A DNA stretch of 64,000 nt from Mayamaea pseudoterrestris (lineage: Eukaryota; Bacillariophyta; Bacillariophyceae; Sellaphorales; Sellaphoraceae). The notes under the pieces were generated by a model. That model saw only the letters and a program-made list of their open reading frames with translations. It was not told where the DNA came from and did no database searches. Made by a program: the position numbers and the translations under genes. This document shows, piece by piece, positions 19,923 to 48,856 of this stretch. The stretch spans positions 558,001 to 622,000 of the forward strand of contig BROI01000019.1 in NCBI GenBank assembly GCA_027923505.1, read 5' to 3'. The first letter of the stretch is position 1, and every line of letters starts with the position of its first letter.

Positions 19923-21089
19923 TCACGCCGTTCCATCACCGCTGGCAATGAGCAAACTTGGCGGAGAGCCTTCCACCATTCTCCTTCGACCACGCCGCGG
20001 CGTATTCGTTCGCATTGGCCCACGTGCAACGCTCGGATTGAAGGAATTGCTGCGGGCGACGAGCATCTTGTCGCGTTGCATATTGCGCTCGTTGTTCATT
20101 CGGCTCGACATTGATCGCGTCGGCACGGTTCGCTCGTGATGACTGTGCGCCATACGACCAGCACTGAAACTTTTGCTATTCGCAATGAGGGGATCAAATA
20201 AAACGTCCCGATCGTAGGAGCGAGACCGTCGACGCGTTGTTGCATTGGATGAATCAGTGGGTCGACGCATTGCCGGCGGCCGGTTCGATGCGTTTGCAGC
20301 GGTTGGAAATCGCAACGATAGTATTTTCTTAATGGATCGAAACAAGCTTCGTCGATACGACTTCTTCACCTTCCAGTTTTTGCGCTTGGGTCGCGTGTAC
20401 ATTTCAATAAAGCATAGAACAATGGCAAGGAGAGCGCCCATCGACATGAACGCCACCAATCGCATGGTCTCGTCGCCACGGAGCAGTTGATTGTCGATTT
20501 CGTCATGTACACGAATCTTTTCGGCAGTGGACGCATGCAGCGTCACTTTGACGCCCCTGACCACTGGCAAGCCGGGAGCTGCATGCAATCGCTCCACGAG
20601 GCGCGTATATTCCTCCTTGGTGACGAGCGCTCGCTTGACCAAAACGAACAACCGAGCAGGCGAGTACTGCGTCAGCATATCCGCTGAAAGTGTCACAGAG
20701 CCTGTGAAATTGGCTTCTATAATTACGGTTTCGTCGTCAGCGTGTAGTATTGTAAGCTTGTCGGAATGCAGGTTTATCTGTAGGTCGAGGTCCTCTTGAA
20801 TCACGCCAAGTAAATGCTTTGAAACGACGGCTTCAAGCTCCTGCTGAACCTGTTTCCAATGCAAGTCCTTATCAAGATTTTCGTGAGCATTCGACACTTT
20901 GATGCGCAACGAAAAGGACGGCAGATCATGTTGATGGTGCGCCTCAGGAAGACCCAGTAGAGCGGCTGCATTTCGTAAACGCAGTCGCCGATTCAACGAC
21001 GTCGCCTCCAAATTTTGGAATGTTTGTAGTATATGGAGACACGACCATGATGCTAATAAAAGCGTCAGCGCTACCAAAGTTCGGGCCAT
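19923..21089 (-). CDS. Receptor-like type I membrane protein with SEA-like ectodomain (family member 1)
   Basis: 388 aa from the ATG of MARTLVALTLLLAS; this gives a signal peptide. The ectodomain (about 55-205) begins SFSLRIKVSNAHENL, has an alpha/beta pattern with the block VIIEANFTGSVTLSADML, a helix (LFVLVKRALVTKEEYTRLVERL), and ends VRGVKVTLHAS just before the single TM helix (LVAFMSMGALLAIVLCFIEMY). The cytosolic tail of about 155 residues is basic, Arg/Ser-rich and probably disordered. The same order of elements occurs in three other genes here (35407, 36970, 46952). The domain recalls SEA folds or a diatom-expanded unknown family, but I cannot name it. No kinase domain. Confidence 0.75.
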   Translation of the reverse strand: MARTLVALTLLLASWSCLHILQTFQNLEATSLNRRLRLRNAAALLGLPEAHHQHDLPSFSLRIKVSNAHENLDKDLHWKQVQQELEAVVSKHLLGVIQEDLDLQINLHSDKLTILHADDETVIIEANFTGSVTLSADMLTQYSPARLFVLVKRALVTKEEYTRLVERLHAAPGLPVVRGVKVTLHASTAEKIRVHDEIDNQLLRGDETMRLVAFMSMGALLAIVLCFIEMYTRPKRKNWKVKKSYRRSLFRSIKKILSLRFPTAANASNRPPAMRRPTDSSNATTRRRSRSYDRDVLFDPLIANSKSFSAGRMAHSHHERTVPTRSMSSRMNNERNMQRDKMLVARSNSFNPSVARGPMRTNTPRRGRRRMVEGSPPSLLIASGDGTA

Positions 21090-21453
21090 GGTGATTTCCA
21101 AGAGTCAGCTACCATTCGTAGGTGTCCGCCGGACCGAGTTGATGGTCGCAGTTGCCAATCCTCCGAGTCCTCATCAATCTCAAGATGCTTTTTCAAAAGT
21201 GAAGCAGGAAGTATAAAAACTGCTGCATGTCTAATCACTCGTCTCCCATCATGGTCATGAGATGGCTTCCACAAGTACAAGTACAAGTACCGTGGTATCA
21301 CGCGTCGCATGCATCTGCGTTGGCAGTCGCATCGGTTTACGTTGAAATCGCACCGGTTATGAGGCGTGCAGCAAAAAAATGACCGTTGCGTTGCAAAATA
21401 ATTATAATGCAACAAGTTTGCTGCGCCTGTTTACATTGTAATCTACATGCATT
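21090..21453. promoter_or_regulatory. Divergent gap between the receptor-like gene and the coiled-coil gene
   Basis: 364 bp between divergent starts. It contains a short tandem (CAAGTA three times near 21276-21293). Both promoters should lie here. Confidence 0.4.
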
Positions 21454-23319
21454 ATGGAGCTGAATGATGGTTTAAATCCGCCGCTGCGTCAATTTTTGAC
21501 GCGAGTCACCGACCCAGAGGAACTGCCTCGTGTAGCACACAGATGGGTTCGCGACGCTGACGGCAACGACGAGAATGAGGAGGGCGCTGCGGCCTCTAGA
21601 CCTTTATGGGATCTTCCAGTCATTCCAGTCTACAAGCTAAATGATGGTTTTGAACTCTGGCAACTTGCTTTGGTGGATGCTGATAGTTTTTGGATGCTCT
21701 TTGCTAATGAGGAGATCACCGAGGACGAGGACTTGATCATTTGCATTACCAGCGATATAGGCGTCATCTTTGGTAGCACATTAAAAAGGTTCAAGTCTTT
21801 GCGACTTGTTAATAATAATGGAGACAAATTTGTCAAGCTTGGTCCAAGATTCGTATCTTATGTTGGCGAGGAAAGTCGCAATGCAATTTTTGAAGGCGAA
21901 CTCTTCGTATTGCACTCGTCGGGTGTTCGGCCGAGCACAGACAAGCTACAGCTTTGCCAGAAGGAAGTACAAAATCTCCTTCGCCTGGCCACGCGCTTTC
22001 CTTTGCCGCGGCGCATACTGCCGGGGACTGACCATGGTCGACGTCTCGAGCTTTATGGTAAAGACTCGAACAATGCTCAAACAAAACCGCTTGACATGTT
22101 TTCCGCAGAATGTTTGCGCGAGTGTTTCGGGCAAGCCGACTGGAAGCGAAACGCAAGACTCACACTAAGCAATTATCCGCTTTCCGCAAAGGAATGGAAC
22201 GTGTTGCAGGAGTTTACATTCAAAGACCTGCGAGTGTCTGGTCATGCGCCTCTCTCATGGACCTTTTTGCAAAATACGAAGGCTGAGTCAATTCAGGTTC
22301 ATGACGACCCTGAGTTAGAGCGAGATTTTCAAAACGACGCAAGCCCAGTGTCAACAAGGATTGTTTTTCGCCCTCCCTACTTATTGCAAGTGAGCGGAAT
22401 TGATGGCTTTTGTCGCAAATGGCTCTCCATTGCCAGTGATGTGGAATTAGAGGAAGTGCGCATGAGCGAAACGTCTTGGCAGTACCTGTGGCAATCAAAC
22501 GTTTTGTTGGACCGCACCAGCTGGACATCAATTAGAATCACTGACTTGAAGATTGGTAGAAAAAACATGGAATTTGAGGATGCGAGGGTTATTCCAGCCG
22601 ACCGACCGTGGACACTCAAGTGGTTTGCGGCAAAAGACGACGAAAGCAATGGCTCGTTGCTTATTCGTCGCATAGTTCCGTCCTTTGCAGATGAAGAAAT
22701 GTCCTACTCGCGTCGGGACGCCAGCAATCCACTTGTCCGTGATGCGCCTCCACCGGAAGCTAGTCAGTCGGTGGTATTGGCCGCCATGTTGGCTGCTCGC
22801 AACGACCCCGATCGGCTCTACCGACTTTGTCGCTCGTATGCGCACATGCTCACCAAGCCACGAACATCAGCTACTCGGCTTTCGGAGTTGGAGACAGGTT
22901 TGATTGAGCTTCGGACATTGGGAATGGACCATGATGCAACGATTGCATTGGTCATGCAAGTCATGAATGCGCAGCAGTTCCAGCATGATCGCGAGCTGCA
23001 GCAAATGGGAGAGCAAATGCAGCAAGCACTGGAGCAGCAGCGCGTAGCTTCTGCCCGCGAGCTGCAGCAAATGCGAGAGCAAATGCAGCAAGCACTATGG
23101 CAGCAGCACGTAGCTTCTGCTCGCGCTCTGCAGCAAGCACTGGAGCAGCAGCGCGTAGCTTCTGCTCGCGAGCTGCAGCAAGCACTGGAGCAGCAGCACG
23201 TAGCGTCTCGGGTGGAACAGGAGCAGTTTAGTGAACAGCTGCATTCTCTCGTGGATTTGAATCGCTCGCTCGAGATGAGAGTGGTTGACTTAGAGGAGCA
23301 GCAACGAGACCGTCGCTGA
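21454..23319 (+). CDS. Unknown 621-aa protein with C-terminal tandem coiled coil
   Basis: Intronless. There is no signal peptide or TM helix. Residues 1-440 are globular-looking and mixed alpha/beta (e.g. PVIPVYKLNDGFELWQLALV, DLIICITSDIGVIFGSTL), with no motif I recognise. From about 500 to 605 lies a Gln-rich coiled coil built from near-repeats of ELQQALEQQRVASA; the DNA repeats are also near-identical, so this part expanded recently. It may be a cytosolic scaffold or self-assembling protein. I do not assign a function. It converges with the TAP-like ABC gene downstream. Confidence 0.7.
   Translation: MELNDGLNPPLRQFLTRVTDPEELPRVAHRWVRDADGNDENEEGAAASRPLWDLPVIPVYKLNDGFELWQLALVDADSFWMLFANEEITEDEDLIICITSDIGVIFGSTLKRFKSLRLVNNNGDKFVKLGPRFVSYVGEESRNAIFEGELFVLHSSGVRPSTDKLQLCQKEVQNLLRLATRFPLPRRILPGTDHGRRLELYGKDSNNAQTKPLDMFSAECLRECFGQADWKRNARLTLSNYPLSAKEWNVLQEFTFKDLRVSGHAPLSWTFLQNTKAESIQVHDDPELERDFQNDASPVSTRIVFRPPYLLQVSGIDGFCRKWLSIASDVELEEVRMSETSWQYLWQSNVLLDRTSWTSIRITDLKIGRKNMEFEDARVIPADRPWTLKWFAAKDDESNGSLLIRRIVPSFADEEMSYSRRDASNPLVRDAPPPEASQSVVLAAMLAARNDPDRLYRLCRSYAHMLTKPRTSATRLSELETGLIELRTLGMDHDATIALVMQVMNAQQFQHDRELQQMGEQMQQALEQQRVASARELQQMREQMQQALWQQHVASARALQQALEQQRVASARELQQALEQQHVASRVEQEQFSEQLHSLVDLNRSLEMRVVDLEEQQRDRR
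23000..23210 (+). repeat. Tandem coding repeats in the coiled-coil gene
   Basis: Four or five imperfect copies of an approximately 42-66-bp unit around GAGCTGCAGCAAGCACTGGA and GCAGCAGCGCGTAGCTTCTG. They encode repeats of QQALEQQRVASA and keep the reading frame. Confidence 0.7.
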
Positions 23320-23663
23320 GGTTTATGTAAACGACTTGTCTGCTAGTATATGTTTTACTCTATATGTGGATACAATAAAAAGCATTTTGATAGCTATTAA
23401 ATACTGTTGTATTGTCAGTACCAATGGCTAGCCTTGAACCATCGGAAATTTGTGCATGTACAGCCGCTGCTTCGTCTCGCTGTAAGTCTTCTTCCCCCTG
23501 AGTGATGTTGTGCCACTCGATCAATCGATTTCGTGTAATTTGCCGCAAGTGATGCGAACAAGGCCCAACCCATTTGATGTGAGACAATCACGCCGTTGTT
23601 GACACATTGAAACGATAAATCGCTACGTTAGACAAGTCCTACCTTCTTTTGAAAGGCGAATAG
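23320..23663. terminator. Convergent 3' region of the coiled-coil and TAP-like ABC genes
   Basis: 344 bp between two convergent stop codons. An AATAAA is present at about 23373 for the plus-strand gene. A short minus-strand open frame (23360-23587) is not supported as a gene. Confidence 0.4.
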
Positions 23664-26327
23664 CTAGTTCTCCGGTAAAATATTCGACGTTCCGGCCCGC
23701 TCCACCATGCTTTTATAGGATCCATTTGCCTTGTTCATTAACTCGGAATGGCTGCCAAGCTCAGCGACCTGTCCTTGGTCAATAACGGCGATATAATCGG
23801 CGTTCCGGACCGTCTGAAGTCGATGTGCAATGACAATGGTCGTCACTGAATGATTTGTGGTTAGCAAAAGCTTATCGAGAGCCTCCTGAACGATTTTTTC
23901 GCTCGTAGAATCAAGGCAACTCGTTGCTTCATCCAAAATTAGTAGTGAGGGCTTCTTCACAATGGCTCGCGCTATGGCGATTCGTTGACGCTGGCCGCCT
24001 GCAACCAGACACAACAAAGGATTAGACACAAAAGGATAAAGAATTACGATTACCAAACAAAACTAACCGCTCAAAGAACCACCTCGTTCACCCACTTGTG
24101 TTTCATAGCCGGCTGGAAATCTCTGGATAAACGAATCTGCATTCGCGAGAACAGCAGCTCGAATAGCTTCCTCCCGAGATGTTTGCGGACAACCATACAG
24201 TATGTTGTCGAGTATGGATCCTTGAAACAAAACTGGTTCTTGAGTTACCACTCCAATCTCTCGCCGATACGCCAAGATATCGAAAGAGCAAAGGTCCCAC
24301 CCATCGATAAGAATTGTACCTCGCTCGGGATCGTACATTCTTTGTATCAAGTTGATTATTGAACTTTTGCCGCATCCCGAACTGCCAACAAGAGCCAGCG
24401 TCTTTCCACGTGGAATGTCCAAGTTAATTGATGAAAGGACCATGGCTTGCGGACGGCTTGGATATGAAAACGACACATTCTTTAGGTGCACGGAGAATGG
24501 CCTGGTTGCTGGCTGAAATCTATTAATAAACCCGTCGCTTTCGACAAATTCATCGTCCACCGCAATAACATCCTCACTGTTCGTAGCAGGAGGAGGAGGT
24601 CTGCGATCCAACAATGCAAACACCTTGTCACCAGCTCCCGACGACTTTATCAGCGACGAATATGACTGAAACAAATTTAGTAGTTCCTGTTGTAGAGATC
24701 CTTGATACAGCATAAAGGCGAGGAGAACCTCAGAGCTAAGACCATGTCGCTCAATGAGGTGAGATCCGACGTAAAGGAGCATGCCTTGGACGACCGTGTT
24801 GATGAGAAAAGTGCTGACTGCCATGTAGTAGACTCCAGTCATGTACAACTGCCGGACATTGAGCCTGAAATGCTGTTCAATCTTCTCACTGTATCGCTTG
24901 CTTTCCTGCCGTTCTGCTGCAAACGCAATTACCGTCCTGACGTTTGTCAACGCTTGCTGCGCCACGTTATTGGCTTCTGCTAGCGCATTTTGAACTTGTT
25001 CCGCATTCTTGGCAAGCCAGACGCCATAGAATCTGTTAATCGCCGCCACAATTGGTGCCATGGAGACGGCGCATGCACCCAAAGTGGGACATCGCCAAAG
25101 CATGTAAGTTGTGATTCCGGTTATGCGTACGACTGATTCAATGCTGAATCGAAAGAACCAGGTCAAGTCACCACCCATTTCCGAGCAATCACTTGTGAGT
25201 CGACTCGTCAATTCTCCAGTACTCGTCACGTCAAAAAAGCCCATTTCCTGTCGCAGCAAGTGGCCAAACAAGTGTAGTCGCAAATCCTTGACGATGCGTT
25301 GGTTGGAATAGCCAAACAAAAAGACGCACCAGAAGTCAAGCAACGCATCAATCGAGCCCGCGACGAGCAAATACAATATTTCTTGGTGCGCCTTGTGAAA
25401 ATCGGCTTGCGCGAGTGCCGAAAGCGTCGTGGCGACAAAGTGCGGCATCGACAGCGAGCACGGTAGACGAAGCAGCAGTACAAAGCAACCCAAGTACAAG
25501 TACATGGTTTGTGGCTCGGCAAGCTTGAGTAAGCGGCGTGTCCCTCGAAGTCGATCCGAAACATCAGCGGCTTCATTATGCATGTCTGGACTGTTGGGCG
25601 GCGATAGGAGTGGCGTTGTCGGCGAATTTTGGTCGTCGTCGTCACACGTTTCAATCGCGACGTCAACATTAACGCATGCATTGGCATTAGCGCATCCTTC
25701 CAAACCCGTAGATTGTTCAAAGTTTTCTTCGTCGAGTATTAGATGGTAGTCGGTAGTCGCTTCGAGGGTGGATTCGTGATAATTTGTTGAATTTGTTGTC
25801 GAAGCTGCTGCGCCATTTGTATCTTCCTCCGATGCTTCGGGCCAGAATGACAGCATCAAGGCTAAAGCAGACGTGATAAGCATTCCTAGACCAATCAATA
25901 GCATCCAGATATCCATTGAAGCGTTGAAATCGCGGTCTTTGCTGTTCAAGTGATTCGCATTCATTCGCCATCCGACGAAAACCAATCCGAAACCAGTCAC
26001 CGTGCTACATATGTTTGACGCTCGAGTCAGCATGCTGGCAAGTAGCGAATGATTTTGTCCGACGCGTTCCTGCTCTTGCTGACTGCCAAGAGTGCCCTGT
26101 TGTGCCGACACAATAAACCACGGAACGAGCACTAGCAATGTGACACCACTCGCCAGCTGCCCCGACAGAACCATGGCAATGAGAGTGAGCCATGGATGCT
26201 GCTGTACGAAAAGTACGAGAATCAGTACTGCAAGGCATGCATAAGATGTAACGCTAAGAATAAAGGTATTCGAGTGAACATTGGCAGGTCTCGTGGACTC
26301 GACACCAGTGGCCAATGGCGCCACCAT
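23664..26327 (-). CDS. TAP-like ABCB half-transporter
   Basis: Two exons: 24068..26327 and 23664..23998, intron 69 nt, phase 1, splitting the ABC signature LSG|GQRQR; 864 aa. The start is the ATG in a CACC context ([12 protein letters not shown]). The N-terminus has about four TM helices, then an acidic Ser/Thr-rich loop (about 175-270). The exporter TMD follows with [24 protein letters not shown], the MDR/TAP signature. NBD: Walker [12 protein letters not shown]-loop VVTQEPVLF, signature [14 protein letters not shown], Walker [14 protein letters not shown]-loop IAHR. Resembles ABCB8/9/10 and TAP proteins; these act as dimers exporting peptides or hydrophobic compounds from an organelle. It is divergent from the MFS gene, 161 bp apart. 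Confidence 0.93.
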
Positions 26328-26488
26328 GGTGATGACGACAAAGTGCGCGCGTCGCAACAAAGTGTGTGGTCAAGCGCAATTGAAAAGAACTATGATTCGT
26401 GAATACTCCGTTGACGCGACTATTCAAGACGAAATTCCGATGCGCGCGAGTGTTAACCATCTCATCACCAATACCATCCTTCTTGTTG

Positions 26489-28241: not shown

Positions 28242-31200
28242 TCACGAAACTATATTACCGCAGCTTAAAATACATTCGCCTTCTGGGCATTGCCAGTTGA
28301 TAAATCCACGACAAGTAGCAGATTGACAACGGCATGGAATGCGTTTGCTTAGATCTCGTTCGACCGGCAATCTATAATCGTAAGTAATTTCATCTCCCAT
28401 CGCAATTGACGTCCTTGCCATAACAAAGACTCGCGTCTTATGTACTCCAGGCTCCATCCCATGCACGACTTTTGTGATGCAATTGGGCGTGCAGCTGTGG
28501 TTTATGAAGCGGCTGATTCGTCCTTTACGGGTTGCATCCAGTACATAGTTTTTCTCAATGCGGAACTGAAAGCACTGCTGCCCAAAATGCAAGTTCTTCT
28601 TCTGTTTAGCTTCGGCAAGCAAAGCATTGCAATACTCACCAACAATTTCGCATACAATCTCACCAGTTTCATAAGCCTTGTCTGCAAAAAGGCCGACGCC
28701 ATGTATTTTAGACTTTCTCACCGAAACAATCTCCTGCTTAATTCCGGCGCCACCCATCAAGTCCTTATCTTTCTTTGCCATTTGTCTGCATGTTTTGTCG
28801 CTGCCCGTCCCTGTAGAAAGAAATAGGCGGGATCCGTCGATGCGCTTTAAAATGTTCTCATCCCTTTTCGCTTTGGCAATCTCCCTGGCCGACGCCTTCA
28901 GTATGTCAAGCTGTTCCTGCAAGCTGTTACAACGAGCGCACCCGCTACTGAGCAGCGCCGTGCGTAAATTTAGGCGACGGGCTCGAACACAGTGCAGCAA
29001 CCGAATGATAGACTCCTCGCGAGGCGAAGTGATATCATGAGGACGTACACAATGCACAACAGCAACTTGTTGATCAATGTGTTCGCAAAGAGCATCATCA
29101 TCAATGAATGAGCGAAAGGGAATGGCACTGAACGGATTCAGAGATCTTGGATATGGTGCTATTGACGCTTCCGCTGCTTTGGCAGCGCGGCGGACAGCCA
29201 GCGCGCCGTACAATGCCACTTCATTCTCAAACATCCGCACGCAACCTGTTTCTATCTGATTCTTCAGCCATTTTTCCAATCTCCGCATGGTCAAAGCTAT
29301 CGAAGTTGCTGTATGTTCTGCAGAGTTGTTGAAGGTATCAGCGGATAGGGCAACTGTAATTGCTTGGACCCATTCTTCGGCTTTCGTGGCCATCTCGCTT
29401 AGCAAAGTAAATATTAAGTCCGCTGTTTCAGTCTGTAGCGAGCCTACAGGGTAGATTGAACGTGCATCGTGACACAACAAACGTATTTGCTCCACAAATG
29501 ATCTGACATCAACGTATTCATTCCTCAGTAGTCGTGAACGTATCATGGTAAGGCCCTTTGGTTGACTAACGCTGTCATCTGCGTTCTCGGGTACTGTTAG
29601 TTTGGATAATTCGTTTAATGAGCGAAAAGGGTCGCGTCTCAAGATGGCTACAAATATACCGGCGCAAGCAATAAATGTAATTCGTTTGCTCCACCCACCA
29701 GAATCGAGCAAGCTCTTCGTTTCGTTGACTGTAATCATTTTATCAAGATTCGAAAGATTAGACCCCATCTCGCCAACCGTCTCGATGGAGATAAAGTCCG
29801 CCGATGATTGGTCCGCCGGGTTCTCAAGCACTTTACTGTGGCGGCTGACAACATGCTTCTCCGGTTCGTGTTTAACGTCGCTAGTTGAAGCACCAGACTC
29901 GTCTTCGTCTCTTAAAATGGCTGCATCTACCTTTGGCCGCGGAGCAGCGACAGGCCGAGAAGGGAGAATGGCAATTGGAAGGAATTCTCGTTTAGCGAGC
30001 TTCTTGGCGATAGTACGATCACCTTCCGACAATTCAACCGTCTTTTCCTTACTGTGCACACGATTTAGCATGGTGCTATGCACGACAAGATTTTCATGTC
30101 GCTCAGAATTCCTTCGCCTTGCCGAAAAATCGACGAACTGGGCTTTCAGGCACTTTAAGCAACCTGCATCTAGGCGTGTAATGCAATGACAACTACCGCA
30201 CTCGTACAAATGGACACTTCCAGACTCCATCGATTCGCTCGAAAAGGCTGAAGTAGTGTCTGACGCTTCACTTTCCCCAGTGAGAGCTGTTGGCATGAAA
30301 TTTGACAAGGCTAACGCTCCTTCCACGAATCTTGCGATATCGTCGGCCCGCGCACTTGGATTAGTCAGAGAGCAGCTTGGACTCGGTAGTAGATTGTCCA
30401 GTATCTTTTGTTGCATGGTTGGCCTCCACTCCATCATTTCCCCATCGCGTATTTCTGGTGAATTGTCATGTTGCAAACGTGGCCGCAACCCTAAACCCAC
30501 ACGCGTTGCCAGAAGCGAACTCAGTCCAGGTTGGACCTTTGCCCGACGCTTGACAGCCGGCAAACGACGCTGGACTACGGGACAGTAGTGCAACCACCCA
30601 CGTGTACAACCGTAACACTCATCGCCCACACTAGTTGCGACTGGTCCGTGCATTGAGGCAGCACCCTTGGTGGCTCCTTGCCCTTCTATGATCTCCAGTC
30701 GATTCACCGCAAACAATGGATCCGATGCGTGAAACCTCACGTCGTGCAGAGCGGCGATTAAGACTTTGTTGTAAAACACATCTGATTCCATTTCAACTTC
30801 CTTGTGACCAACAGAAACTTTGTCATATAGGCGTTTGTGTAGCGCGTTCTGCAGTTTTAAATCTTCCTCCGTATCTGCCATGCTTTGTGGCTCAGTCATA
30901 AAATCCTCCGCCGCGTCATCATCAGCCATTGCCTGCACATTCTTATCTTCTTTCCACTGAATGATGCGGTGCTCAAATTCATTCATGGACATGTTGACGT
31001 ACCGCCGGCATTCAAATGGGCGGAGCTTAGAAAACCAAACTGCCGCTTCCTTGGCAACGAGTGCGTTGCGTTCCAAATTGCCTTTGGACAAGCGGTTGAA
31101 GTATCGATGGGATTTAGTGAGAGCGCGCTCAATCTTCCAGCGATTCTCGCTCAAGAAAAAGTAGACTTGTGTGTAAAAGTGAAATAATATGTGAGTCAAG

Positions 31201-32203
31201 TCATCTGCGACAAATGAGATAACATTGTAACGCTCACTTGTTTCCACTCACACGCTGGAGTAGCTTGCACGAGACCTTGCGCATGAGTCCGATTTCCTAG
31301 AGCAGCCATAAGAGGATCAGCTGGAACTCGTCGATCCATAGATGGACTAGCTGGTACTGCAAGCGGAGCAAGAGCTGCAATGACTTCGGATTGATCCGGA
31401 TTCTCCGAGCGCGAGTCAGTTACCCTCCGCTGCTTCCGGACCGGCCTGTCCCCGTTTCTCTCGCGCTTCTTGACCTTTTGCTTGATATTGTCTTGTTCGT
31501 TTGAATCATAATCGGTATCAGCCGTCAGTGCGGGTTTTGGAGATGTTGCTCTAGCGCGTCGCTTCCGTGCCGGATTGGTTACTTGATCGGTCGGGTTTAC
31601 TGGCTTGTGGTGCTCTTTTAAGGAATCATTTACTTGTCCTTCCTCCGAGTTTGTCTCATGGTCTAGTAAATGGGAACCCATCTGGAGGTTCTTGTTTGCT
31701 TGTTCTTCCGGTGAATGACGATCTGTCTCCTCGTGATTTACAGAATTTTCATCAGCTGGAGTTGCTACTTTCAACTCCCAACAGACTGGACAAAACCATG
31801 GATCATCGTCTCGCAGCAGACTCAAATGAGATTCTCCCTCCAAAGGCAGACATCTCAAGTGGTATGCTCTGGGACATCCATCACAGCACACAATTTCCCC
31901 GAGTTGTTTGCAGACTTGACAGTAGAATTTGTTTCCATCATGCCCAATGAACGAGTCTTGTGGGGCGAATCCCGGAGGAGACGCAAAGATTTGATTATCA
32001 ACCATGATTCGAAGTGCAACAATATCATTTTTGTGTAAAGCCGTCAAGAGTTTGAGTGGCTCTGACGCTATATTATTGTTCATTTCAGCCGGCGATTCGG
32101 ATGGAGAATGATCGAGCGTTGGAATAGGTGATGATGCTTGGAGCGATGCTACATCATCAGCGGGTGTCAATTCGTCTAGTGAATCGCTTTCCTTCATAGT
32201 CAT
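28242..32203 (-). CDS. PHD finger and SET domain histone lysine methyltransferase, trithorax/MLL-like
   Basis: Two exons: 31252..32203 and 28242..31204. The 47-nt intron (GTGAGT...TCGCAG, phase 1) is very short but joins the two frames exactly; 1304 aa. A PHD finger lies at 95-141: CQVCKQLGEIVCCDGCPRAYHLRC...WFCPVCW. Basic NLS-like runs follow (ARKRRARATSPK, KQKVKKRERN). The middle has Cys/His clusters (CYGCTRGWLHYC, CGSCHCITRLDAGCLKC). The C-terminal SET domain (about 1140-1280) has HGVGLFADKAYETGE, RFINHSCTPNC, GDEITYDY and post-SET CRCQSATCRGFINW. Order and motifs resemble KMT2/trithorax H3K4 methyltransferases. Nuclear chromatin regulator by family. No bromodomain, FYRN/FYRC or AdoHb-type extension is obvious. 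Confidence 0.9.
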
Positions 32204-33756
32204 CAAGGTAAATTACTTTTAAAACAATTGACCCGATCCGTCAGTTGCGAGCTGCACAACTATTGTGTGGGCCTTGAATTTTCGCTGGACGCCGCTCGTG
32301 AACGTGGAAGTCGAAATTGAAGCAGCGGCGCTTGGACAAAAGGTCGAGTCACTTCGTGTTCTAATATTGCCCGACGAGACACTTTTCACGAAATATATAA
32401 GTAATGTCGGAATCACGAAGTATGAAAACGAATATCAATCAACCACCTGTTTCTAATCGCGTGCGTCGTCAATCACAAGGTGCCGGAACGTCAATGGGAC
32501 TTTAGATGGGCATCCTCCATTCTACTACAGAAAGGCTCGTCACATGGTTGGCAGCAAGTCCATTCACTCGTTACCGTTTAATATAGTTGGGGGTATACAA
32601 AGAACGACGACCTAAGCTACGACTTTTGTTATGAATTTTAAGGCAAATGGAGGAGATAATGACACCGCTTGTCATAGAGATTGCCCCTTACTTTCGGCGC
32701 CACCCAACGGGTGAGAAGGCAGCGCCGCGTGTGCACGTTGCTACAAAAACTATATAAACATCAGGACCGCACAGCCGAGGGGCATGAAGTGATAGCCGAG
32801 GGAAATGCGCCGATGGAAAAGAGGAATGCAGCATTGTTGTTGGTCGATTGGACGGCAAATGTGGAACGCTTCCCCAACTTTGCGGCTATTCGAACAGGGA
32901 TCCGAAACGTCTGCGATACTGGATAGTACTCCCCGAAGTTTGCGATAACTTAAGATATCTCAAGTCTGTCCGACACCTGCAACTGTTGTTCTTTGCTGTA
33001 ACAATGGCCACCGCACACCTCCTGCTCTGCTGGGCGTCAACCTCAACCTTCCTCGTCTGGATCGCCTCCGCTGCGCCATGGGCTGAAGCAATGCTCCTCA
33101 CCAGATGGCCTACGGCAATTGTCGAAGTACTGCTGCTGGAGCACGTCTCTCAATGCTCGCTAGGCCAATCCAGAAATACTCGAGCATTGTGGGTTGCAAG
33201 GCATTACAAGTCTCTTCATAAAGGGCCGGAAGACTGTGGCAGCAGCAAGTGAAACAGGTTTCGCATGGCGGGAGAGCATGCGATAAAACGCGTCGCAATT
33301 GATCCGTTAAAGCAATATGCTCATGCGAGTATCCGGGCCGGATTGGGAATGTAGCATTTGCATCCCGCATTGCTTCCTTCGAATCCTTTTGATTTAAAAT
33401 GCGGGGCTCGTCCACAGTCTTTGCAGACGACTTGATAAACGGCTGTGCATAAAGCCGTTGGGCAAAAGGAGGATCAGTCGACGGCGTATATGGCGGTCAA
33501 AACGATCCAAACAAATGTATCCAGGAACAATTACTCGCCGGAAATTTAAACTCTGACCGTCCTTGGCCTTCGATGGCGATTTTGAAAGGCCACATGATAT
33601 AGTGGAAAATACCCAAAGAAGCGTTGGTCTACCGGTAGAAAGTAGTTTTTAGTATATAAATGGCAGACGTAGTAAATGTTGTTAAGCTGCGAGAGACCAA
33701 GAACTAGGGCTGTACTTGCTCGCATTTGCTTACCAAACAACCGCCAATTCAATCTA
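32204..33756. other. 1.55-kb intergenic region with no supported gene
   Basis: It lies between the SET gene start and the ankyrin gene end. Several short frames exist: 33004-33252 plus has a hydrophobic start (MATAHLLLCWAS), and 33110-33498 minus has protein-like text (e.g. AQRLYAQPFIKSSAKTVDEP) but no ATG at its beginning. They overlap on opposite strands and neither is recognisable. They could be exons or remnants. No RNA gene or terminal repeat was seen. Confidence 0.4.
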
Positions 33757-35406: not shown

Positions 35407-36864
35407 ATGACAAGGCATGCAATATTACGATTGGTTGGAGTAGTGCTATGTTGCTATACATCATTCGCATGGTCGCCTCATGAATCGATCCACTCGAATC
35501 TGTCAGCTGCGCCAAATTGTTCACACTCTTCACCACCTACACAAAGAATAAGCGAATTAATTCGCGGATCGCGACGGAGAATACAAACGCTGGCATCCTT
35601 TCCAATACCTGGTTTCACCATGACAATGAAGGTTGGATCCAAAGGGCTTGATCTCTTGACATTTTCCGACGAGCTAGAGACAGTCACGGAGAAACACTTG
35701 TCGGATGTACTGCTTGATCAAATACCAACGACTGGACCACTTGGTCAAGACAACTTTAAAGACTTTGTTCTCGAAAATGCAGTATCAGCGAGTCCATATG
35801 ATGACATTGACGTGCTACTGCAAGTTAATTTTACTGGTGGAGCAATTTTCGCCAACACTTCACTGTTAAGCAACGCCACTTTTGTACAAACAACCATGTT
35901 TGACTCCATCAAGGCTGCATTCTTGATAGCAGACGGATATAATACATTTGTGGCTCGCATTGAAGCCAACGCGGAGCTGCAACGCATCAAGGGCGTCAAA
36001 ATATCGGTGAACCCGTACTTTGGGCCGGCGCCGCCTCTTCCTTCCAATGCACCCACAATGGCGCCAGCATCCAATAGTCCAAGTGAAGCTGACGACGCTG
36101 CTGTTATTGGAACCATGATGATTGCGGTCATTGTCATTGTAATCATTGTGCTAGTGGCAGGCTGCTTGGGAACGTGGTACTATTGTAATCAGCGCAAGGC
36201 CAAGGAGCGACGACGACAGGTTGCAAAACTGGCCAAGCAAAGGTCGGACCGCGCGTTGCTACGAAAGCATCAATCGAGTCGGTCGCTGGGAACAAACAGC
36301 ACGATAACTATGAGTGGGATTGACGGCAGTATGTCCAGTATGAATGGGAGCGCTCGCAATGTAGCAGCAGGTAGTATGACGAACGGTGCCTCGTTGAGTC
36401 CTATTCGACAATCGCCAGCTTCATCAATGGGCCAGAAGAATGTTCCTCCAGCCGCCTTTTCTCGGCCGTCGTTACAATCAAGACGTGCCATTTCGTTAAT
36501 GGCAATTACAGAGGATGAAGACGAATCCGAAGCAAGCGGAGATGTTGGTTCTGAAACGCGCTCGTCGAGCCGAGGGTCTGCCAAGCAAAAGCGCCTCATT
36601 GCGTCCGACAGTGCTCTTGGAGAACGTGATTTGTCCAATAGTTCGGGGACAGAAGATCATATATATGTATTTGACACGAGTGTGCCTAAATTGTGGGCAT
36701 CCGATGCCTCCATCAACCAGCAGCATCTGCCTTTTACGGATGAAGACGGAAATGAAGATGGAGATGACGACGAAGACGATGAACTTATAAGTGGAGCGAG
36801 CAGTGCAGACGAGCGATTTGAAGATGAATACAAAGCACAGTATCACGGGAGAGAGGCGCTATAG
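35407..36864 (+). CDS. Receptor-like type I membrane protein with SEA-like ectodomain (family member 2)
   Basis: 485 aa from the ATG of MTRHAILRLVGVVLCCYTSF, chosen because it opens a signal peptide; the frame extends 29 codons upstream. The ectodomain (about 65-205) starts FTMTMKVGSKGLDLL, has DVLLQVNFTGGAIFANTSLL, a helix (DSIKAAFLIADGYNTFVARIE), and ends RIKGVKISVNP. A short Pro/Ser stalk (LPSNAPTMAPASNSPS) precedes the single TM helix (VIGTMMIAVIVIVIIVLVAG). The tail of about 230 residues starts with a basic anchor and is Ser-rich with a very acidic end (DEDGNEDGDDDEDDEL). Potential N-glycosylation sites occur in the ectodomain. Same layout as genes at 19923, 36970 and 46952. Confidence 0.75.
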   Translation: MTRHAILRLVGVVLCCYTSFAWSPHESIHSNLSAAPNCSHSSPPTQRISELIRGSRRRIQTLASFPIPGFTMTMKVGSKGLDLLTFSDELETVTEKHLSDVLLDQIPTTGPLGQDNFKDFVLENAVSASPYDDIDVLLQVNFTGGAIFANTSLLSNATFVQTTMFDSIKAAFLIADGYNTFVARIEANAELQRIKGVKISVNPYFGPAPPLPSNAPTMAPASNSPSEADDAAVIGTMMIAVIVIVIIVLVAGCLGTWYYCNQRKAKERRRQVAKLAKQRSDRALLRKHQSSRSLGTNSTITMSGIDGSMSSMNGSARNVAAGSMTNGASLSPIRQSPASSMGQKNVPPAAFSRPSLQSRRAISLMAITEDEDESEASGDVGSETRSSSRGSAKQKRLIASDSALGERDLSNSSGTEDHIYVFDTSVPKLWASDASINQQHLPFTDEDGNEDGDDDEDDELISGASSADERFEDEYKAQYHGREAL

Positions 36865-36969: not shown

Positions 36970-38886
36970 CTATGCCAGCTTTGAATACGCAGCAATACCA
37001 AAGGTCATGACATCGTCCACCGGGGCACCGCTCTCTTGAGCACGTCGACGTCGCTCATTAGTACCATGGCTGTGTGAGCGTCGGGATCGACGACCTGGAG
37101 CGGCTGTGCGACCACGAGAGATGCTTGCGTTTAGACTGGGACTTGTGCTGGTAGCAGTTCCATTGCGTTTGCTTCCACTGGTTGGCGGCAACGGTGGTGC
37201 CATTGCTTGTAGCGACCCCTGACTGGACGATCGCACGAGGCCCGCTCGTTTCGGTTTTCCCATCATCGAATCACCAATAGTCGTCATTTTAGCCTTTGCT
37301 CCGCCAAATCTTTGCGCAATTTTACCAACGGCTGACATGGAACTTTTGCTACGCGTTACGCGATGGCCAGGGAGTGCTGCACTCCCCGTGTCGTTGCTAA
37401 TTTCCGGCTGATGTATACGTTGACGTTGCATAGGTTTCGGTGGCAACGTCTTTCGCGGCGAAAATTCAGCTTCAATGGCTGACAAATCAAGCTCCATTTC
37501 ATGTCGGCGTAGTTGCAAATCACGCTTTCGCGCCTCTTCCTCGATGCGATATTTCTTATCATGCTGCATGCGATTTTCTTGGTAATGCTGATGTTTCCTC
37601 TCAAACAAACCTTCCAGCTTGTCCATGAATACTTCGGCATCATTTTGCGAAAACTCATCATCATCACGGCTAAGTTGTTCCCTATCAAAGCTCGCCTGCA
37701 AATTGCGCCGAAAGAATTCATCCGCGTATCCCTCGGGAGATTGCTCATCACCCTCTTTAGAATCACTATACTTCCAGATTGGCGTACCATCGTGGCGCGA
37801 CCAGTCTTGAAAGGCAAAATCGTATTTTGACGCATCCTTGCCGCGGACCAAACCATCGCCAGTGCCACATTGCCCAGCTCGTCGACGCAGCAAGGTATGT
37901 TTGAGCCAGCCAGACACTGAAATAATCTTGGCTGCCGGCGACGACGGAGACACATTACTCGATGACGGCGAAGTCGCAGCCGTTGCTGGAGAAAGGCCAG
38001 GCGAAGTCTTGTCCATGAGGTCGGGTCGATGTCTCGACAAGTATTGGTCAGACGCTTGGAGCACCTTGTTCGCCACGGCGGACGCTTCCGATTCATCATT
38101 GTCCGTGTCGTCCGATTCGCGACCAGCCAGTACAGTAGTCGAGTAACTATTGTCGTTTCTGTGGACCCATTTCTTGTGAATGTTTGTTATTATGTGATTC
38201 TTCTTGACGAGCAAAAAGAGAGGAATCATGCCAACCAAACCAACCAGGAGAACGGTCGTCAGGAGAATGGGTTGCTCCATACCAGTCTTTTCGGAGTCCA
38301 AATTAATGAGCCCCAGTGCAGCGTCTCCCACTTGTAGACTCAAGAAGGAATGCTTTTGTATCACGATATTAGCGCTATCTTTCATGTATTGCTGCAAGAA
38401 TTTACGATCTTCGGTAAATGTTTGGAGAAGAACGCTTTGGGCAACATAGTAGATTTCCTTGTCGGAAAGTTTGTTTTCCGAGCTATAAGTCCCATTACGA
38501 AGCATGACTTGACCTTGGAAGACGGCAGTAATGCGTTGCTTGGAGGGACTGATTGACTTGGAAGATAAATCTGAAATGCTCACGCGGAGCGTGACGTAAT
38601 TCTGTCGCAGCCAAAGCAACCTAACATCATTTGTAGGCATACTCAGAGCTTCATCAAAGCTTTCGGCTAAAAATTCTCCTGCAATGAGTGACAAAGGACT
38701 GTTTATCCGATCCAAATCCGAGTCTGAGGTCACCAATGAAGTAAATTGTATGGAAAATGGAGGGAGATTGGCAGAAGCAGTTTCTAATCGTCGTCGATCG
38801 CTGCTAGATCCGCGTAAGCTGCCTCTTCCTTCAGCTCCATAGAGCCATAGCAGCAGGAGAGTAGAAATAGCTTGCAGTTTCATCAT
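36970..38886 (-). CDS. Receptor-like type I membrane protein with SEA-like ectodomain (family member 3)
   Basis: 638 aa, intronless. Signal peptide MMKLQAISTLLLLWLYGAEG. The ectodomain (about 40-205) opens PPFSIQFTSLVTSDSDL and has ITAVFQGQVMLRNGTYSS, a helix (YYVAQSVLLQTFTEDRKFL) and HSFLSLQVGDA. One TM helix follows (ILLTTVLLVGLVGMIPLFLL), then a cytosolic tail of about 400 residues. The tail is Ser-rich with a charged helical stretch (KHQHYQENRMQHDKKYRIEE) and an Arg/Ser-rich end (RTAAPGRRSRRSHSHG). It is tail-to-tail with member 2, 105 bp between stop codons. Function unknown; the tail length suggests signalling or scaffolding. Confidence 0.75.
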   Translation of the reverse strand: MMKLQAISTLLLLWLYGAEGRGSLRGSSSDRRRLETASANLPPFSIQFTSLVTSDSDLDRINSPLSLIAGEFLAESFDEALSMPTNDVRLLWLRQNYVTLRVSISDLSSKSISPSKQRITAVFQGQVMLRNGTYSSENKLSDKEIYYVAQSVLLQTFTEDRKFLQQYMKDSANIVIQKHSFLSLQVGDAALGLINLDSEKTGMEQPILLTTVLLVGLVGMIPLFLLVKKNHIITNIHKKWVHRNDNSYSTTVLAGRESDDTDNDESEASAVANKVLQASDQYLSRHRPDLMDKTSPGLSPATAATSPSSSNVSPSSPAAKIISVSGWLKHTLLRRRAGQCGTGDGLVRGKDASKYDFAFQDWSRHDGTPIWKYSDSKEGDEQSPEGYADEFFRRNLQASFDREQLSRDDDEFSQNDAEVFMDKLEGLFERKHQHYQENRMQHDKKYRIEEEARKRDLQLRRHEMELDLSAIEAEFSPRKTLPPKPMQRQRIHQPEISNDTGSAALPGHRVTRSKSSMSAVGKIAQRFGGAKAKMTTIGDSMMGKPKRAGLVRSSSQGSLQAMAPPLPPTSGSKRNGTATSTSPSLNASISRGRTAAPGRRSRRSHSHGTNERRRRAQESGAPVDDVMTFGIAAYSKLA

Positions 38887-41048: not shown

Positions 41049-41249
41049 GGTGGTTTTTATGTGAGTGACGACTGTATGACCGAAAGAAAAATCTGATGAC
41101 CCGTGGAGTAACGAAGCGACGTTACGAGCCTTCATCGCTAAATCTTTTAGCTATCGATACAGGTACCTATTGATACCTGGAGTGCGTATATACTTACACG
41201 TTGACGTACGAGTAACATAAAGGCAAAGACAAGTCAGTAATCGTAAAAT

Positions 41250-44844: not shown

Positions 44845-46386
44845 ATGAACAAATTACAAGAAGATGCAGACGACATGGAGTGGGTGCTGTTGGTGCCTCC
44901 CAAGCTGACCCAACTCGTCTACAAGGCCCTCGTCGGCTGCGACTGCGTAAGCCGTCCATGGGAACTAGCCGGCCGCACCGGAGCACGAATTCACAGTCAC
45001 TCAGAAACGCAAATTGGAATTCCAATTGCGAGAAAGGAATTGCTTGATGCTTTGATTCAAAATGCAAGTGCCGGAAATGGCATTGTCGATGACAACCTTG
45101 GGCCTGACAATGACGACAGCCAGAACTACAACAATGAGGATCGAATCTTTCTACGCGACCTTCTATCACACACTCCTGGTGTTGAATTGATACGGAAACC
45201 GTTTACAGCTTCAAAATCGGCCAAAATATACGAAGAAAAACAATTCGATGCACGTGTTCATCCAGAGCGAGCTCCCAGTCCAGATGAAGGAGCTGGCTGC
45301 AACATGGACAACGACTCGACAATGTCACCAGCATTCACTTACGCCGAACTCTTTGCCGGTATTGGTGGATTTGGTGTGGCGCTGGAGCGTCTTGGTGGAA
45401 CGTGCATCTTTTGCTCCGAGCTGGAAGAATCTTGTCGAGACTTGTATTCGCTCATCTTTCCGAACACGAAGCACCTTGCTGGCGATATACTAGAGGTTCT
45501 TGACCATGACCTACCGAAAGCAGGTACACTGGATTTGCTCGTTGCTGGGTTTCCTTGCCAACCGTTTTCGGCTCTCGGCGAACAGCCGGGGCTGACCTGT
45601 CCAACGAAAGGCAACTTATTTCTTCAAGTCGTGCGCCTCCTGAAGGTGTCACAGCCCAAGGCTTTTCTCCTTGAGAACGTTCCTGGACTGCTGGGTATGG
45701 TCAAGGATTTGGAAGTTATAACAACTGCATTGGAAGAAGCAGGATATGATGTTACCATTGAGGTTTGTAGCTCGCGGGGTTTGACTGCTTCTATGCGCAA
45801 ACGGCTTTACTTTGTGGGGCTCCGCAAGGAGGAACAAGAAGATCAATTCTCGCATCCATTCGAATTTCCATATATTCCGGACCTTGGTTTGCGCGCGAGA
45901 CATATTCTTTTATACAATGACAATCCCGAGAACGATTCACTGCGCGTTTCCGATGATCAATTCGCTCGGCTGCAGCGCGAGAATCACTGGCGGCCGAACC
46001 ACATGGCATGGCCCACCACCGTGTGCGATACCTTGGTGTCGCATTATGGAAACGCCATTGGGCAAGGCAACAGCCAGCTAGTGCCTTGCGCGCGTGGAAA
46101 GCCTCGTCGGTTCACGCCGCGCGAGTGCGCCCGCCTCATGGGCTTTCCAAACTCGTACAAGCTTTTTGACAAGCCCCGCCAGCATCAAGGGGAAATGGCA
46201 TTCGTCAAGGAGCAGTATCGTATGTTTGGTAACGCTGTTTGTCCTCCCATCATTGCGGCTCTAGCCGGAGCAGTCTTGGCGCATTGCGACAGCATTGGTG
46301 GTTACAAAAACCATGAGGACTGGGTTGCTTTTGGACGGTTTTGTGCGGTGGAGCTAGCCCAGGCTGCGATGCTACCCAAGTCTTAA
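44845..46386 (+). CDS. C5 cytosine methyltransferase with extra N-terminal domain
   Basis: 513 aa, intronless. Residues about 170-500 carry the C5-MTase motifs in order: I FAGIGGFG, IV GFPCQPFS with the catalytic Cys, VI ENVPG, VIII RKRLYFVG, a target-recognition region, IX RRFTPRECARLMGFP, X YRMFGNAVCPP. The layout is prokaryote-like; the DNMT2 CFT motif is absent. Residues 12-75 (WVLLVPPKLTQLVYKAL... QIGIPIARKELL) resemble the N-terminal region of tRNA methyltransferases of the TYW2/TRM5 type (inference). No signal peptide, BAH, PWWP, RING or SNF2 domain. The enzyme methylates C5 of cytosine in DNA, or perhaps RNA given the extra region. Diatoms carry several bacterial-like C5-MTases, so ancient transfer is plausible. 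Confidence 0.9.
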   Translation: MNKLQEDADDMEWVLLVPPKLTQLVYKALVGCDCVSRPWELAGRTGARIHSHSETQIGIPIARKELLDALIQNASAGNGIVDDNLGPDNDDSQNYNNEDRIFLRDLLSHTPGVELIRKPFTASKSAKIYEEKQFDARVHPERAPSPDEGAGCNMDNDSTMSPAFTYAELFAGIGGFGVALERLGGTCIFCSELEESCRDLYSLIFPNTKHLAGDILEVLDHDLPKAGTLDLLVAGFPCQPFSALGEQPGLTCPTKGNLFLQVVRLLKVSQPKAFLLENVPGLLGMVKDLEVITTALEEAGYDVTIEVCSSRGLTASMRKRLYFVGLRKEEQEDQFSHPFEFPYIPDLGLRARHILLYNDNPENDSLRVSDDQFARLQRENHWRPNHMAWPTTVCDTLVSHYGNAIGQGNSQLVPCARGKPRRFTPRECARLMGFPNSYKLFDKPRQHQGEMAFVKEQYRMFGNAVCPPIIAALAGAVLAHCDSIGGYKNHEDWVAFGRFCAVELAQAAMLPKS

Positions 46387-46951
46387 TAGCAGCTTCGAGC
46401 GACTCAAGCTTGATGGCTACTTGCAGCGTAGCGGTACGGTAAAAGCGTCACTCCGAATCTACGAATTGTGCATGGATGCAAACCAACTTTCTCGCGACGG
46501 GGAGCAAGGTGTGTACCGCTCCGACGATCATTTGACTTTTCATTCTTGCTTTCGGAACAGATGGTCGCAGACCATGAGTATTCGACCACAAACAAGCAAG
46601 CATGCTGCCATCACCGCTTTTCGCTTAGCGACTATACGTAGAATATAAGATTGAAGTGCTTTCAAGCGCTCATTGCACAATGCTGAGCTTGATGGCTTGT
46701 TTGTCATTGTATTATGAAGCCGTTATGGAACGCGAGCCTCGAGTGGAACGTGGAACGACGACAAAATTGTCGAGCATCAACGTTGCGACGGTCATTCGTG
46801 ACCTCGAGGAACCAGCTTGATCCTCCTCTTTCAATATGCAAGATGTGCAAGAAATGGACATCTTTAACCTGTGGTGATATCTGCATGCGCATGACCAACG
46901 AAAGTTGCACTCAAACGAACCAGCAGTCGTGAGACTCGCGAAACAGAGGCA
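46387..46951. other. Intergenic between the methyltransferase and receptor-like gene 4
   Basis: 565 bp with small chance frames on both strands. It holds the promoter of the next plus-strand gene. No RNA gene or repeat seen. Confidence 0.35.
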
Positions 46952-48856
46952 ATGGGTTGCTTATGTTGCTGTAAGAGTTCGTTTGTCAAAGCATGGTTTG
47001 CAATATTCGCATATTCGCTCCTTTCGCAATGCGTTTCATCGCTCACTTTCAAGAACGGAGCGAAGGACGATGCAACTGCCTACACGCTGCCACAAGTTTC
47101 CGTGATTGCTGAGTACGCCACACAAGCTCAGCTACGCATTACAAGTACATCCGACACTTTGCAAGGTCCGCTTCAAAAGCAGACAGAGATTTATTTGGCC
47201 GTCTACATGTTTAGAGAGTTTTCTGTGCAGCAATCTCTAAATTTTGGAAAACTTGTTTCGTTTTCGCTGGATGCCAAAGTCTACACCTTGCCCTACAACG
47301 AAACGCATACCTTACTGCAGGCAGACTTGCAGGGCAACATTTACTGGCTCGACCAGCCAGCGAAATCGGACGTTACGACTGCCATGCTCGACTTGTACCA
47401 GCAAGCATTCATGACAAAGGAAGGCGTGGGCGAATTGCAGAATCGCTTTCAAGATGAACTTGGCTTGGAGGGAGTCGAGATATTGCGCACACGAGTACAA
47501 GATCGCAAGTATAATACGCGCACGGGCAAGACATCTGGGGAAAAGCCGCAGGGTGCCGCTCCTGCTAACCCAGATGCATCACCGTCGTCTCCAGAAACAT
47601 CTGAAAGCAGCAGTTTCATCATCAGCAATTATTTATTGATCTTTATCGCTGTTATTCTTGTTGCATTGTCACTCCTCCTTGCAGTCTTTGCTATATGCGT
47701 CAGTAAGCGCAAGTACCAGCAACGTGTACGCGCCGAAAATGCGAAAGTGACGGAGAAGCAAGCTGAAGCGGCGTCCTTGCCGACGGATCCAGGCGGCGAA
47801 GACGTTGAAAGTGTCGTGAGCAATTATAGTGGAGGAGATGCAGGTCTTTTACCTGGCAAAACAGACAAAGACCGCCCTGATGATCTTTTGCGGGGCTGGG
47901 CAAGCCCGCAAGAGCCATCACAGTTCGTGCAGAACGTTCGCAACAGCAGGGCGCTTAATACATTCCTGAAAGTTGTGGGACTCGAGACCCCAGCAGATCC
48001 TGAACAAGCCGACAAAGGTAACTTTCGGCAGAACGAGCGCGAAAGAATTTTAAACGATGGAACTGCCATTGAGCGAAGCGAAAAACTTGTGGTACCAAAG
48101 TACAAGAAGGATATATTTAGCATGAATAGTGCAAAGCTCGAGCAGAATCTTGATGATCTCTATAGCCTTTCATTTTCCAACATCCAGCAGGCAGCGGAAG
48201 ACCAGAAAGTAATTGAAGATGATGAACCGGAGAACGGAGAGATATTGGACGTTGATGTACTTGCTGTGTCTGCGGTGCATCGCCTCACGCGTGCACACAG
48301 CGCGCCTTTGTCGGACAGGTTGGGAAGTTCTACCACTGAAAAAGTTTCTGATGACCGACCACTTGTTTCATCACTGAACACTGCCCATTCAAAAACACCC
48401 GGTGAAGCGGAGCAAGCGAGACGCGACGATTTGATGAGAGCGTGGAATCGAGTTGAAGAAAAAGTGTGTGCAGATAAGAAGACACTAATGAGTGCGCCAC
48501 CTATTTCGATTGATTACAAGACTGATAGCAACGTCAGCGATCTCATGCGAGGCTGGAAGTATGACGACGGGAGATCCGTTGGGCACATTTCGAGCAGCGA
48601 AGAAAGCAAACTGCGAAATAGTGGCGTCGCCGCAGCTGGCACTTGTGTTGGTCCGACAATGACTGAAAAAGAAGCAGGTACAATTTTCGAACGCCTTGTT
48701 GCTTCGCCGGCTGCGGACGAGTCTGGCTTTGTGCTCCCGACTACGAAAAACATGTCTGGCTCGTCTGATGAACACACAGAGCCTACAATGGATGTCAGCT
48801 ACGAGACTGAAGCCGGCGCTTCGTCCGCATCTTTCGATGAGCACTCGGACTTGTAG
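46952..48856 (+). CDS. Receptor-like type I membrane protein with SEA-like ectodomain (family member 4)
   Basis: 634 aa, intronless. It opens MGCLCCCKSS, an acylation-like motif, directly before a hydrophobic segment (FVKAWFAIFAYSLLSQCVSS) that could act as signal peptide. The ectodomain (about 45-190) opens LPQVSVIAEYATQAQL and has HTLLQADLQGNIYWLDQP, a helix (AMLDLYQQAFMTKEGVGELQ) and LEGVEILRTRV. A Pro/Ser stalk leads to one TM helix (NYLLIFIAVILVALSLLLAV). The cytosolic tail of about 385 residues is acidic, Ser-rich, and carries three copies of a motif [DS]DL[LM]R[GA]W at residues 310, 492 and 529, likely docking sites. Members at 19923, 35407 and 36970 share the order of domains. Confidence 0.75.
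   Translation: MGCLCCCKSSFVKAWFAIFAYSLLSQCVSSLTFKNGAKDDATAYTLPQVSVIAEYATQAQLRITSTSDTLQGPLQKQTEIYLAVYMFREFSVQQSLNFGKLVSFSLDAKVYTLPYNETHTLLQADLQGNIYWLDQPAKSDVTTAMLDLYQQAFMTKEGVGELQNRFQDELGLEGVEILRTRVQDRKYNTRTGKTSGEKPQGAAPANPDASPSSPETSESSSFIISNYLLIFIAVILVALSLLLAVFAICVSKRKYQQRVRAENAKVTEKQAEAASLPTDPGGEDVESVVSNYSGGDAGLLPGKTDKDRPDDLLRGWASPQEPSQFVQNVRNSRALNTFLKVVGLETPADPEQADKGNFRQNERERILNDGTAIERSEKLVVPKYKKDIFSMNSAKLEQNLDDLYSLSFSNIQQAAEDQKVIEDDEPENGEILDVDVLAVSAVHRLTRAHSAPLSDRLGSSTTEKVSDDRPLVSSLNTAHSKTPGEAEQARRDDLMRAWNRVEEKVCADKKTLMSAPPISIDYKTDSNVSDLMRGWKYDDGRSVGHISSSEESKLRNSGVAAAGTCVGPTMTEKEAGTIFERLVASPAADESGFVLPTTKNMSGSSDEHTEPTMDVSYETEAGASSASFDEHSDL

What the first reader, a model, noticed from the sequence alone, without database searches (positions are those of the whole stretch)
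19923..48856. Four dispersed genes share a receptor-like architecture with one unrecognised ectodomain
Genes at 19923-21089 (-), 35407-36864 (+), 36970-38886 (-) and 46952-48856 (+) each encode signal peptide, an ectodomain of about 150 residues, one TM helix and a long disordered tail. The ectodomains share a pattern: an opening beta strand, a strand with [FL]xGx[VAI] (ANFTGSVTL, VNFTGGAIF, AVFQGQVML, ADLQGNIYW), a helix with an Ala/Phe core and a closing strand (VRGVKVTL, IKGVKISV, LEGVEILR) just before the TM. Identity is low, so this is either an old family or convergence. Four in 30 kb suggests a surface receptor or adhesion family not tied to any standard domain I know.
Basis: partly seen in the sequence, partly recalled or inferred. 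Interest (0 to 1): 0.75.

Follow-up and report, generated by a model that had tools for sequence, protein, structure and literature searches.

The report
Diatom membrane-protein trio sharing an ectodomain
Three genes lying close together on one chromosome of a likely diatom encode single-pass membrane proteins with the same unclassified compact ectodomain and unrelated intracellular tails; a fourth neighbour has the same layout, but its kinship is not shown.

Summary
The four open frames exist at the stated coordinates. Each has one TM after an ectodomain of about 136-151 residues and a low-complexity tail; the signal peptide is an inference and weakest in g4. Three of the four (19923-21089, 35407-36864, 46952-48856) are relatives: leave-one-out HMMs recover each held-out member at 4e-6, 6e-9 and 9e-5 among 1916 ORFs, and a consensus query hits exactly these three places in the 30.6 Mb genome, all within 29 kb. 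The fourth (36970-38886) is not linked by sequence; only weak hints join it. AlphaFold gives the shared ectodomain a beta-alpha-beta-beta-alpha-beta order (pLDDT 81, pTM 0.76), as in ferredoxin-like folds, but no PDB match is convincing (TM 0.38 or less). No Pfam family reaches its cut-off. Tails share nothing. Silicon transporters suggest a diatom. I read this as one old local family of lumen-to-cytosol membrane adaptors, possibly of the cell-wall or silica pathway. A receptor or adhesion role is neither shown nor excluded.

The parts
19923..21089 (-). g1, 388 aa: N-terminal hydrophobic signal, RRL at aa 34-36, ectodomain, TM, 155-aa basic tail
   Evidence: family member
20517..20924 (-). g1 ectodomain (aa 56-191), contains ANFTGSVTL and VRGVKVTL
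35407..36864 (+). g2, 485 aa: signal, RRRI before the ectodomain, ectodomain, Pro/Ser stalk, TM, 223-aa tail
   Evidence: central family member
35605..36024 (+). g2 ectodomain (aa 67-206), modelled with beta-alpha-beta-beta-alpha-beta order
   Evidence: pLDDT 80.7, pTM 0.76
36970..38886 (-). g3, 638 aa: same architecture, RRL at aa 32-34, 408-aa tail; convergent neighbour of g2 (105 bases between them); kinship unproven
38314..38766 (-). g3 ectodomain (aa 41-191), contains AVFQGQVML
   Evidence: single-sequence model pLDDT 58.1, pTM 0.54
46952..48856 (+). g4, 634 aa: weaker N-terminal signal (MGCLCCCKSS start), ectodomain, Ser/Pro stalk, TM, 378-aa tail
   Evidence: family member
47087..47515 (+). 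g4 ectodomain (aa 46-188), contains ADLQGNIYW and LEGVEILR
47882..47899 (+). g4 tail motif DLLRGW, first of three
48428..48445 (+). g4 tail motif DLMRAW, second of three
48539..48556 (+). g4 tail motif DLMRGW, third of three

Best explanation
g1, g2 and g4 are paralogues from old local duplications in a likely diatom. Each is a type I single-pass membrane protein: signal peptide and short pro-segment, one cysteine-free alpha/beta ectodomain (probably ferredoxin-like) in the secretory lumen or outside the cell, a short linker, one TM, and a disordered cytosolic tail. Most likely the conserved ectodomain binds one kind of partner or oligomerises, while the fully diverged tails dock different cytosolic partners by short linear motifs (in g4 a DLxR[GA]W motif occurs three times). 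They would thus act as adaptors that couple the lumen or cell wall to the cytosol. Shown: homology, one TM by hydropathy, predicted strand and helix order, tail divergence, repeated motif. Inferred: signal peptide, topology, fold class, binding, adaptor role.
For: Homology. Restriction to this locus at the sensitivity used. Architecture and charge step across the TM in four of four. Strand and helix order. No Cys in the four ectodomains (the single Cys counted in g2 lies N-terminal of the domain). Tail divergence: 6 of 6 tail pairs within the range of 300 shuffles. Motif in g4: 3 observed, 0 expected, reached in 0 of 1000 shuffles; of 10 genome matches of the DNA pattern 3 are these, the other 7 lie in frames of 10-106 residues.
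Against: No expression, localisation or partner data. g4 failed the crude signal test and its Cys-rich MGCLCCC start could mean another topology. The five AlphaFold models range from 61.3 to 80.7; the alignment held four rows, and the g3 row was not inspected (summary only) and is probably misaligned. Foldseek TM-scores against the PDB are 0.17-0.38 in the rows shown, below what a shared fold usually gives. No eukaryote collection could be searched, so conservation is judged from three paralogues only.
Confidence: 0.45

Rival explanations
1. They belong to the diatom cell-wall or silica pathway: the luminal domain sits in the silica deposition vesicle or under the wall, the pro-segment is cut at RXL, and the tail meets the cytoskeleton, as proposed for Sin1 and the SAPs.
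For: The genome has silicon transporters (10 matches, 9 over the cut-off). Sin1 has a signal peptide followed by about 30 residues ending in RRL, a luminal domain and one TM (passages seen); SAPs have a signal peptide, one TM and RXL sites (abstract and passages seen). g1 has RRL at aa 34-36, g3 at 32-34, g2 has RRRI. RRL occurs at 0.69 per 1000 residues in the 228 ORFs examined.
Against: Only two of the four genes have RRL and one of those (g3) is not a proven member; g2 and g4 have none. Of the 30 other ORFs that passed the crude signal test, 1 has RRL and 9 have some RXL in the same stretch, so the motif is not specific. No Cys-rich NQ domain, no dense Ser run, no shared cytoplasmic segment.
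Confidence: 0.25
2. They are plasma-membrane receptors or adhesion proteins for outside ligands.
For: Receptor-like layout, N-glycosylation sequons in all four ectodomains, strong divergence between paralogues, disordered tails that could signal.
Against: No Pfam domain at its cut-off in ectodomain or tail, so no known ligand-binding or signalling domain; no evidence of plasma-membrane location.
Confidence: 0.2
3. g3 is a fourth, highly diverged member and all four descend from one gene.
For: Next to g2; same layout; LPPFSI opening and an FxG in a strand; highest hhalign score of the 356 non-training ORFs given (20.9 against 18.5 for the next); similar strand and helix order in a single-sequence model; one PDB chain (5thw_A) and other M20-type amidases appear in both fold searches.
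Against: No sequence-level link; hhalign probability 1.8-3.6%; model confidence 58.1 with the other four at 27-33 and an extra strand and helix, which makes its fold matches unreliable; the order is common among proteins.
Confidence: 0.45

Closest known systems
Silicanin-1 (Sin1), diatom silica deposition vesicle protein
   Same: Signal peptide, RRL-ended pro-segment (here g1 and g3 only), luminal domain, one TM (passages)
   Different: Sin1 has an NQ-rich domain with 18 Cys and a 20-residue cytosolic end; here no Cys in the ectodomains and tails of 155-408 residues
SAP family (silicalemma associated proteins)
   Same: Signal peptide, low similarity between paralogues, single TM, RXL sites, cytosolic part
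   Different: SAPs have a serine-rich luminal region and a conserved 28-residue cytoplasmic segment; the densest luminal stretch here has 7 Ser in 23 residues against 18 in 23 in TpSAP1, and the tails share no segment
SEA domain
   Same: Similar strand and helix order beside a TM (SEA features recalled); g1 has FTGSVTL, which looks like a GSVVV site
   Different: No Pfam SEA match in the four proteins; only one of the four has Gly-Ser; in the g2 model the Gly lies inside the third strand, not in the hairpin before it (position of the SEA site recalled)
Ferredoxin-like domains (M20 amidase dimerisation domains, MoaC, IsdG; fold class recalled)
   Same: Order of strands and helices; best Foldseek matches
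   Different: E no better than 1.5e-3, TM-scores 0.17-0.38 and identity 6-15% in the 50 rows shown; no kinship implied

Membership tests
SEA domain (PF01390) | Pfam profile match | tested here: not met
   No match for the four proteins or ectodomains. The genome search also found none, but nothing rang in its control genomes
SEA domain (PF01390) | G|SVVV autoproteolysis site between second and third strand (recalled) | tested here: not met
   GS in one of four (g1); the others read GG, GQ, GN; the site lies inside strand 3 of the g2 model
SEA domain (PF01390) | Ferredoxin-like beta-alpha-beta-beta-alpha-beta fold (recalled) | tested here: inconclusive
   g2 model has this order; no SEA entry among the 50 PDB rows shown of 589; no direct superposition was made
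SAP (silicalemma associated proteins) | Conserved 28-residue cytoplasmic segment after the TM | tested here: not met
   6 of 6 tail pairs show no similarity above shuffles; TpSAP sequences themselves were not at hand
SAP (silicalemma associated proteins) | Serine-rich luminal region | tested here: not met
   At most 3, 7, 7 and 5 Ser in any 23 luminal residues of g1-g4 against 18 of 23 in TpSAP1; luminal Ser 5.4, 11.2, 15.4, 8.6%
Silicanin | NQ-rich luminal domain with 18 conserved Cys | tested here: not met
   0-1 Cys in the lumen, N+Q 9.1-12.7%
Silicanin | Signal peptide plus RXL pro-segment | tested here: inconclusive
   RRL in g1 and g3, RRRI in g2, none in g4; cleavage not testable
Cell-surface receptor or adhesion protein | Plasma-membrane location and a bound outside partner | not testable with these tools
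   Sequence only

The most novel reading that the evidence does not exclude
A diatom-specific family of membrane adaptors built on a luminal alpha/beta domain that has no described family, arisen at one locus, with tails wholly rewritten while the luminal domain stayed, and with a role in patterning the silica wall through docking motifs such as DLxR[GA]W.
Probability: 0.15. Interest if true: 0.6.

Novelty: new variant of a known kind. Interest (0 to 1): 0.32.

Why it matters
Membrane proteins that carry information between the cytoskeleton and the wall-forming vesicle of diatoms are sought and few are known (Sin1 and SAP papers, passages seen). A small family with a Cys-free ectodomain and separable tails would be easy to tag and test. 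As it stands, it is an orphan local family of a kind that many protist genomes hold (recalled).

Tried and rejected
SEA membership: no profile match, and the GSVVV-like site is in another place and in one of four only. Weak Pfam hits below cut-off: DAG1, FAM163, TMEM154, TMEM51 and others lie on TM and stalk, two or so on the tails; the ectodomains alone give other weak hits, all below cut-off (best PaRep2b, E 0.038). A non-self, non-family genome hit for g2 on contig C14 (E 0.54) lies in a frame that reads as a LepA/GUF1-type GTPase (named by recall): chance. Viral and prokaryote collections: 51 and 42 pattern matches, 0 confirmed. Phosphosite and 14-3-3-like motifs in the tails: 3 of 24 tests at P 0.017-0.045 apart from the DLxRxW motif, uncorrected; not used. 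The DLxR[GA]W pattern elsewhere: 7 of 10 genome matches lie in frames of 10-106 residues and several read DFFR, DLFR or DLLS rather than the motif; the tool's control, the pattern read backwards, had 0 matches, and short exons are not excluded. g3 could not be placed stably: alignments A2, A5, A6, A7 and three gap settings disagree. The viral fold search gave one match below 0.001 (3.8e-4, TM 0.47, no name) and otherwise weak ones. Paper searches list no title that describes such a family (listings and abstract starts seen; 20 of 103, 12 of 78, 0 of 0 and 10 of 64 listed). The species was not identified.

Full report
What was checked. The window is C19:558001-622000 of a 30.6 Mb genome in 41 contigs. 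Silicon transporter matches (10, of which 9 over the cut-off, best E 2e-197) make it most likely a diatom (inference). I call the four genes g1 (19923-21089, -), g2 (35407-36864, +), g3 (36970-38886, -) and g4 (46952-48856, +). All four frames are open. Each has one strong hydrophobic segment between residues 203 and 261, with net negative charge before it and net positive charge after it, which fits an ectodomain outside and a tail inside. N-terminal signals are a hydropathy inference: a crude test listed 33 of 228 ORFs, with g1, g2 and g3 among them but not g4; 9 of the 33 have exactly one later TM.

Genome-wide. Single-protein searches give g2 to g1 3.4e-4, g2 to g4 0.22, g1 to g2 1.6e-3, g4 to g2 0.19, and g3 only to itself; full-length g4 finds g2 at 9.4e-5. 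A consensus of the three ectodomains hits three places at E up to 10, and these are g2, g1 and g4; their high scores are built in, the absence of others is the result. That the only relatives found in 30.6 Mb lie within 29 kb argues both for homology and for local duplication. The search has a loose first look and reads exons singly, so distant or intron-split members may be missed.

g3. For: same layout, next to g2 with 105 bases between the two genes, RRL before the ectodomain, the best hhalign score of the 356 non-training ORFs of 120 residues or more given (ORFs over 600 residues were cut to 400), with the match in register from the first residue over 42 columns. Against: probability 1.8-3.6%, no sequence link, unstable alignments. 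A single-sequence AlphaFold model has a similar strand and helix order with an extra short strand and helix, at pLDDT 58.1 and pTM 0.54, the other four models at 27-33. Its PDB matches are all weak, none at 0.001, and share some M20-type amidases with those of g2. I leave g3 open.

Fold. The g2 ectodomain, with four rows of which g3 is probably misaligned (not inspected), folds at pLDDT 80.7 and pTM 0.76; the other models have 61.3-74.7. The order is strand (in two pieces), helix, two long strands, two helices, strand. The FxG motif falls in the second half of the third strand, before the helix. Foldseek finds 589 PDB matches at E up to 10 and none at 0.001; top rows are beta-alanine synthase and other M20 amidases, MoaC and IsdG, with TM-scores of 0.17-0.38 in the 50 rows shown. 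I recall these as ferredoxin-like or related sandwiches. The order fits that class; the TM-scores do not prove it. Pfam finds no family at its cut-off in the four genes or ectodomains. The profile finds one PDB sequence, at E = 1.

Tails. 6 of 6 tail pairs score within the range of 300 shuffles, so only the ectodomain is shared. In g4 the motif DL[LM]R[GA]W occurs three times, reached in 0 of 1000 shuffles. The DNA pattern has 10 matches genome-wide; the 7 outside g4 lie in frames of 10-106 residues. The backward control had 0 matches, so the pattern is not simply what base composition gives; I do not know why. In g4 it looks like a docking motif.

How it may work. A conserved lumen-side domain with diverged tails is the pattern of an adaptor: one shared interaction outside, different ones inside. 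The likely diatom setting and RRL after the signal in g1 and g3 resemble Sin1 and the SAPs (passages seen). But RRL also occurs in 1, and some RXL in 9, of the 30 other signal-bearing ORFs, and the defining luminal and cytosolic features of both families fail. So it may work like them without being one. Receptor and adhesion roles remain possible.

Verdict. A real but small finding: one orphan local family of three, perhaps four, with a probably common fold in an uncommon setting. No paper describing it was seen in the listings, which cover only openly licensed papers.

Noticed in passing
52517-64000, continuing to about C19:626284 (L024): A 169-bp tandem satellite: 63 copies at 96% from 53322 to the window end, about 24 more beyond it. 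Matches, mostly 94-99% identical, lie on 13 contigs in the rows listed. C19:642001-651910 holds arrays with a 347-bp period (L026).
   Followed up: partly
28242-31247 and 31196-32206 (-): Overlapping frames, one with a PHD finger, the other with bromodomain and SET: perhaps one trithorax-like gene (recalled name) split by an intron or frame change near 31200.
   Followed up: no
11361-13368 (+): C-type lectin domain followed by long Pro-Ser-rich repeats: a secreted or wall-type protein; the upstream frame reads by eye like a second lectin domain.
   Followed up: no
44845-46386 (+): C5 cytosine DNA methylase (PF00145, E 1.8e-57).
   Followed up: no
17109-18401 (+): PIG-X / PBN1 family protein (E 2.2e-8).
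   Followed up: no
C19:672028-673779 and 678592-681003 (outside the window): Two more signal-plus-one-TM ORFs that share a stretch after the signal (YYPxGxVNPNxxxxMYWxDASNxLQDxDQFxEL): another local pair.
   Followed up: no
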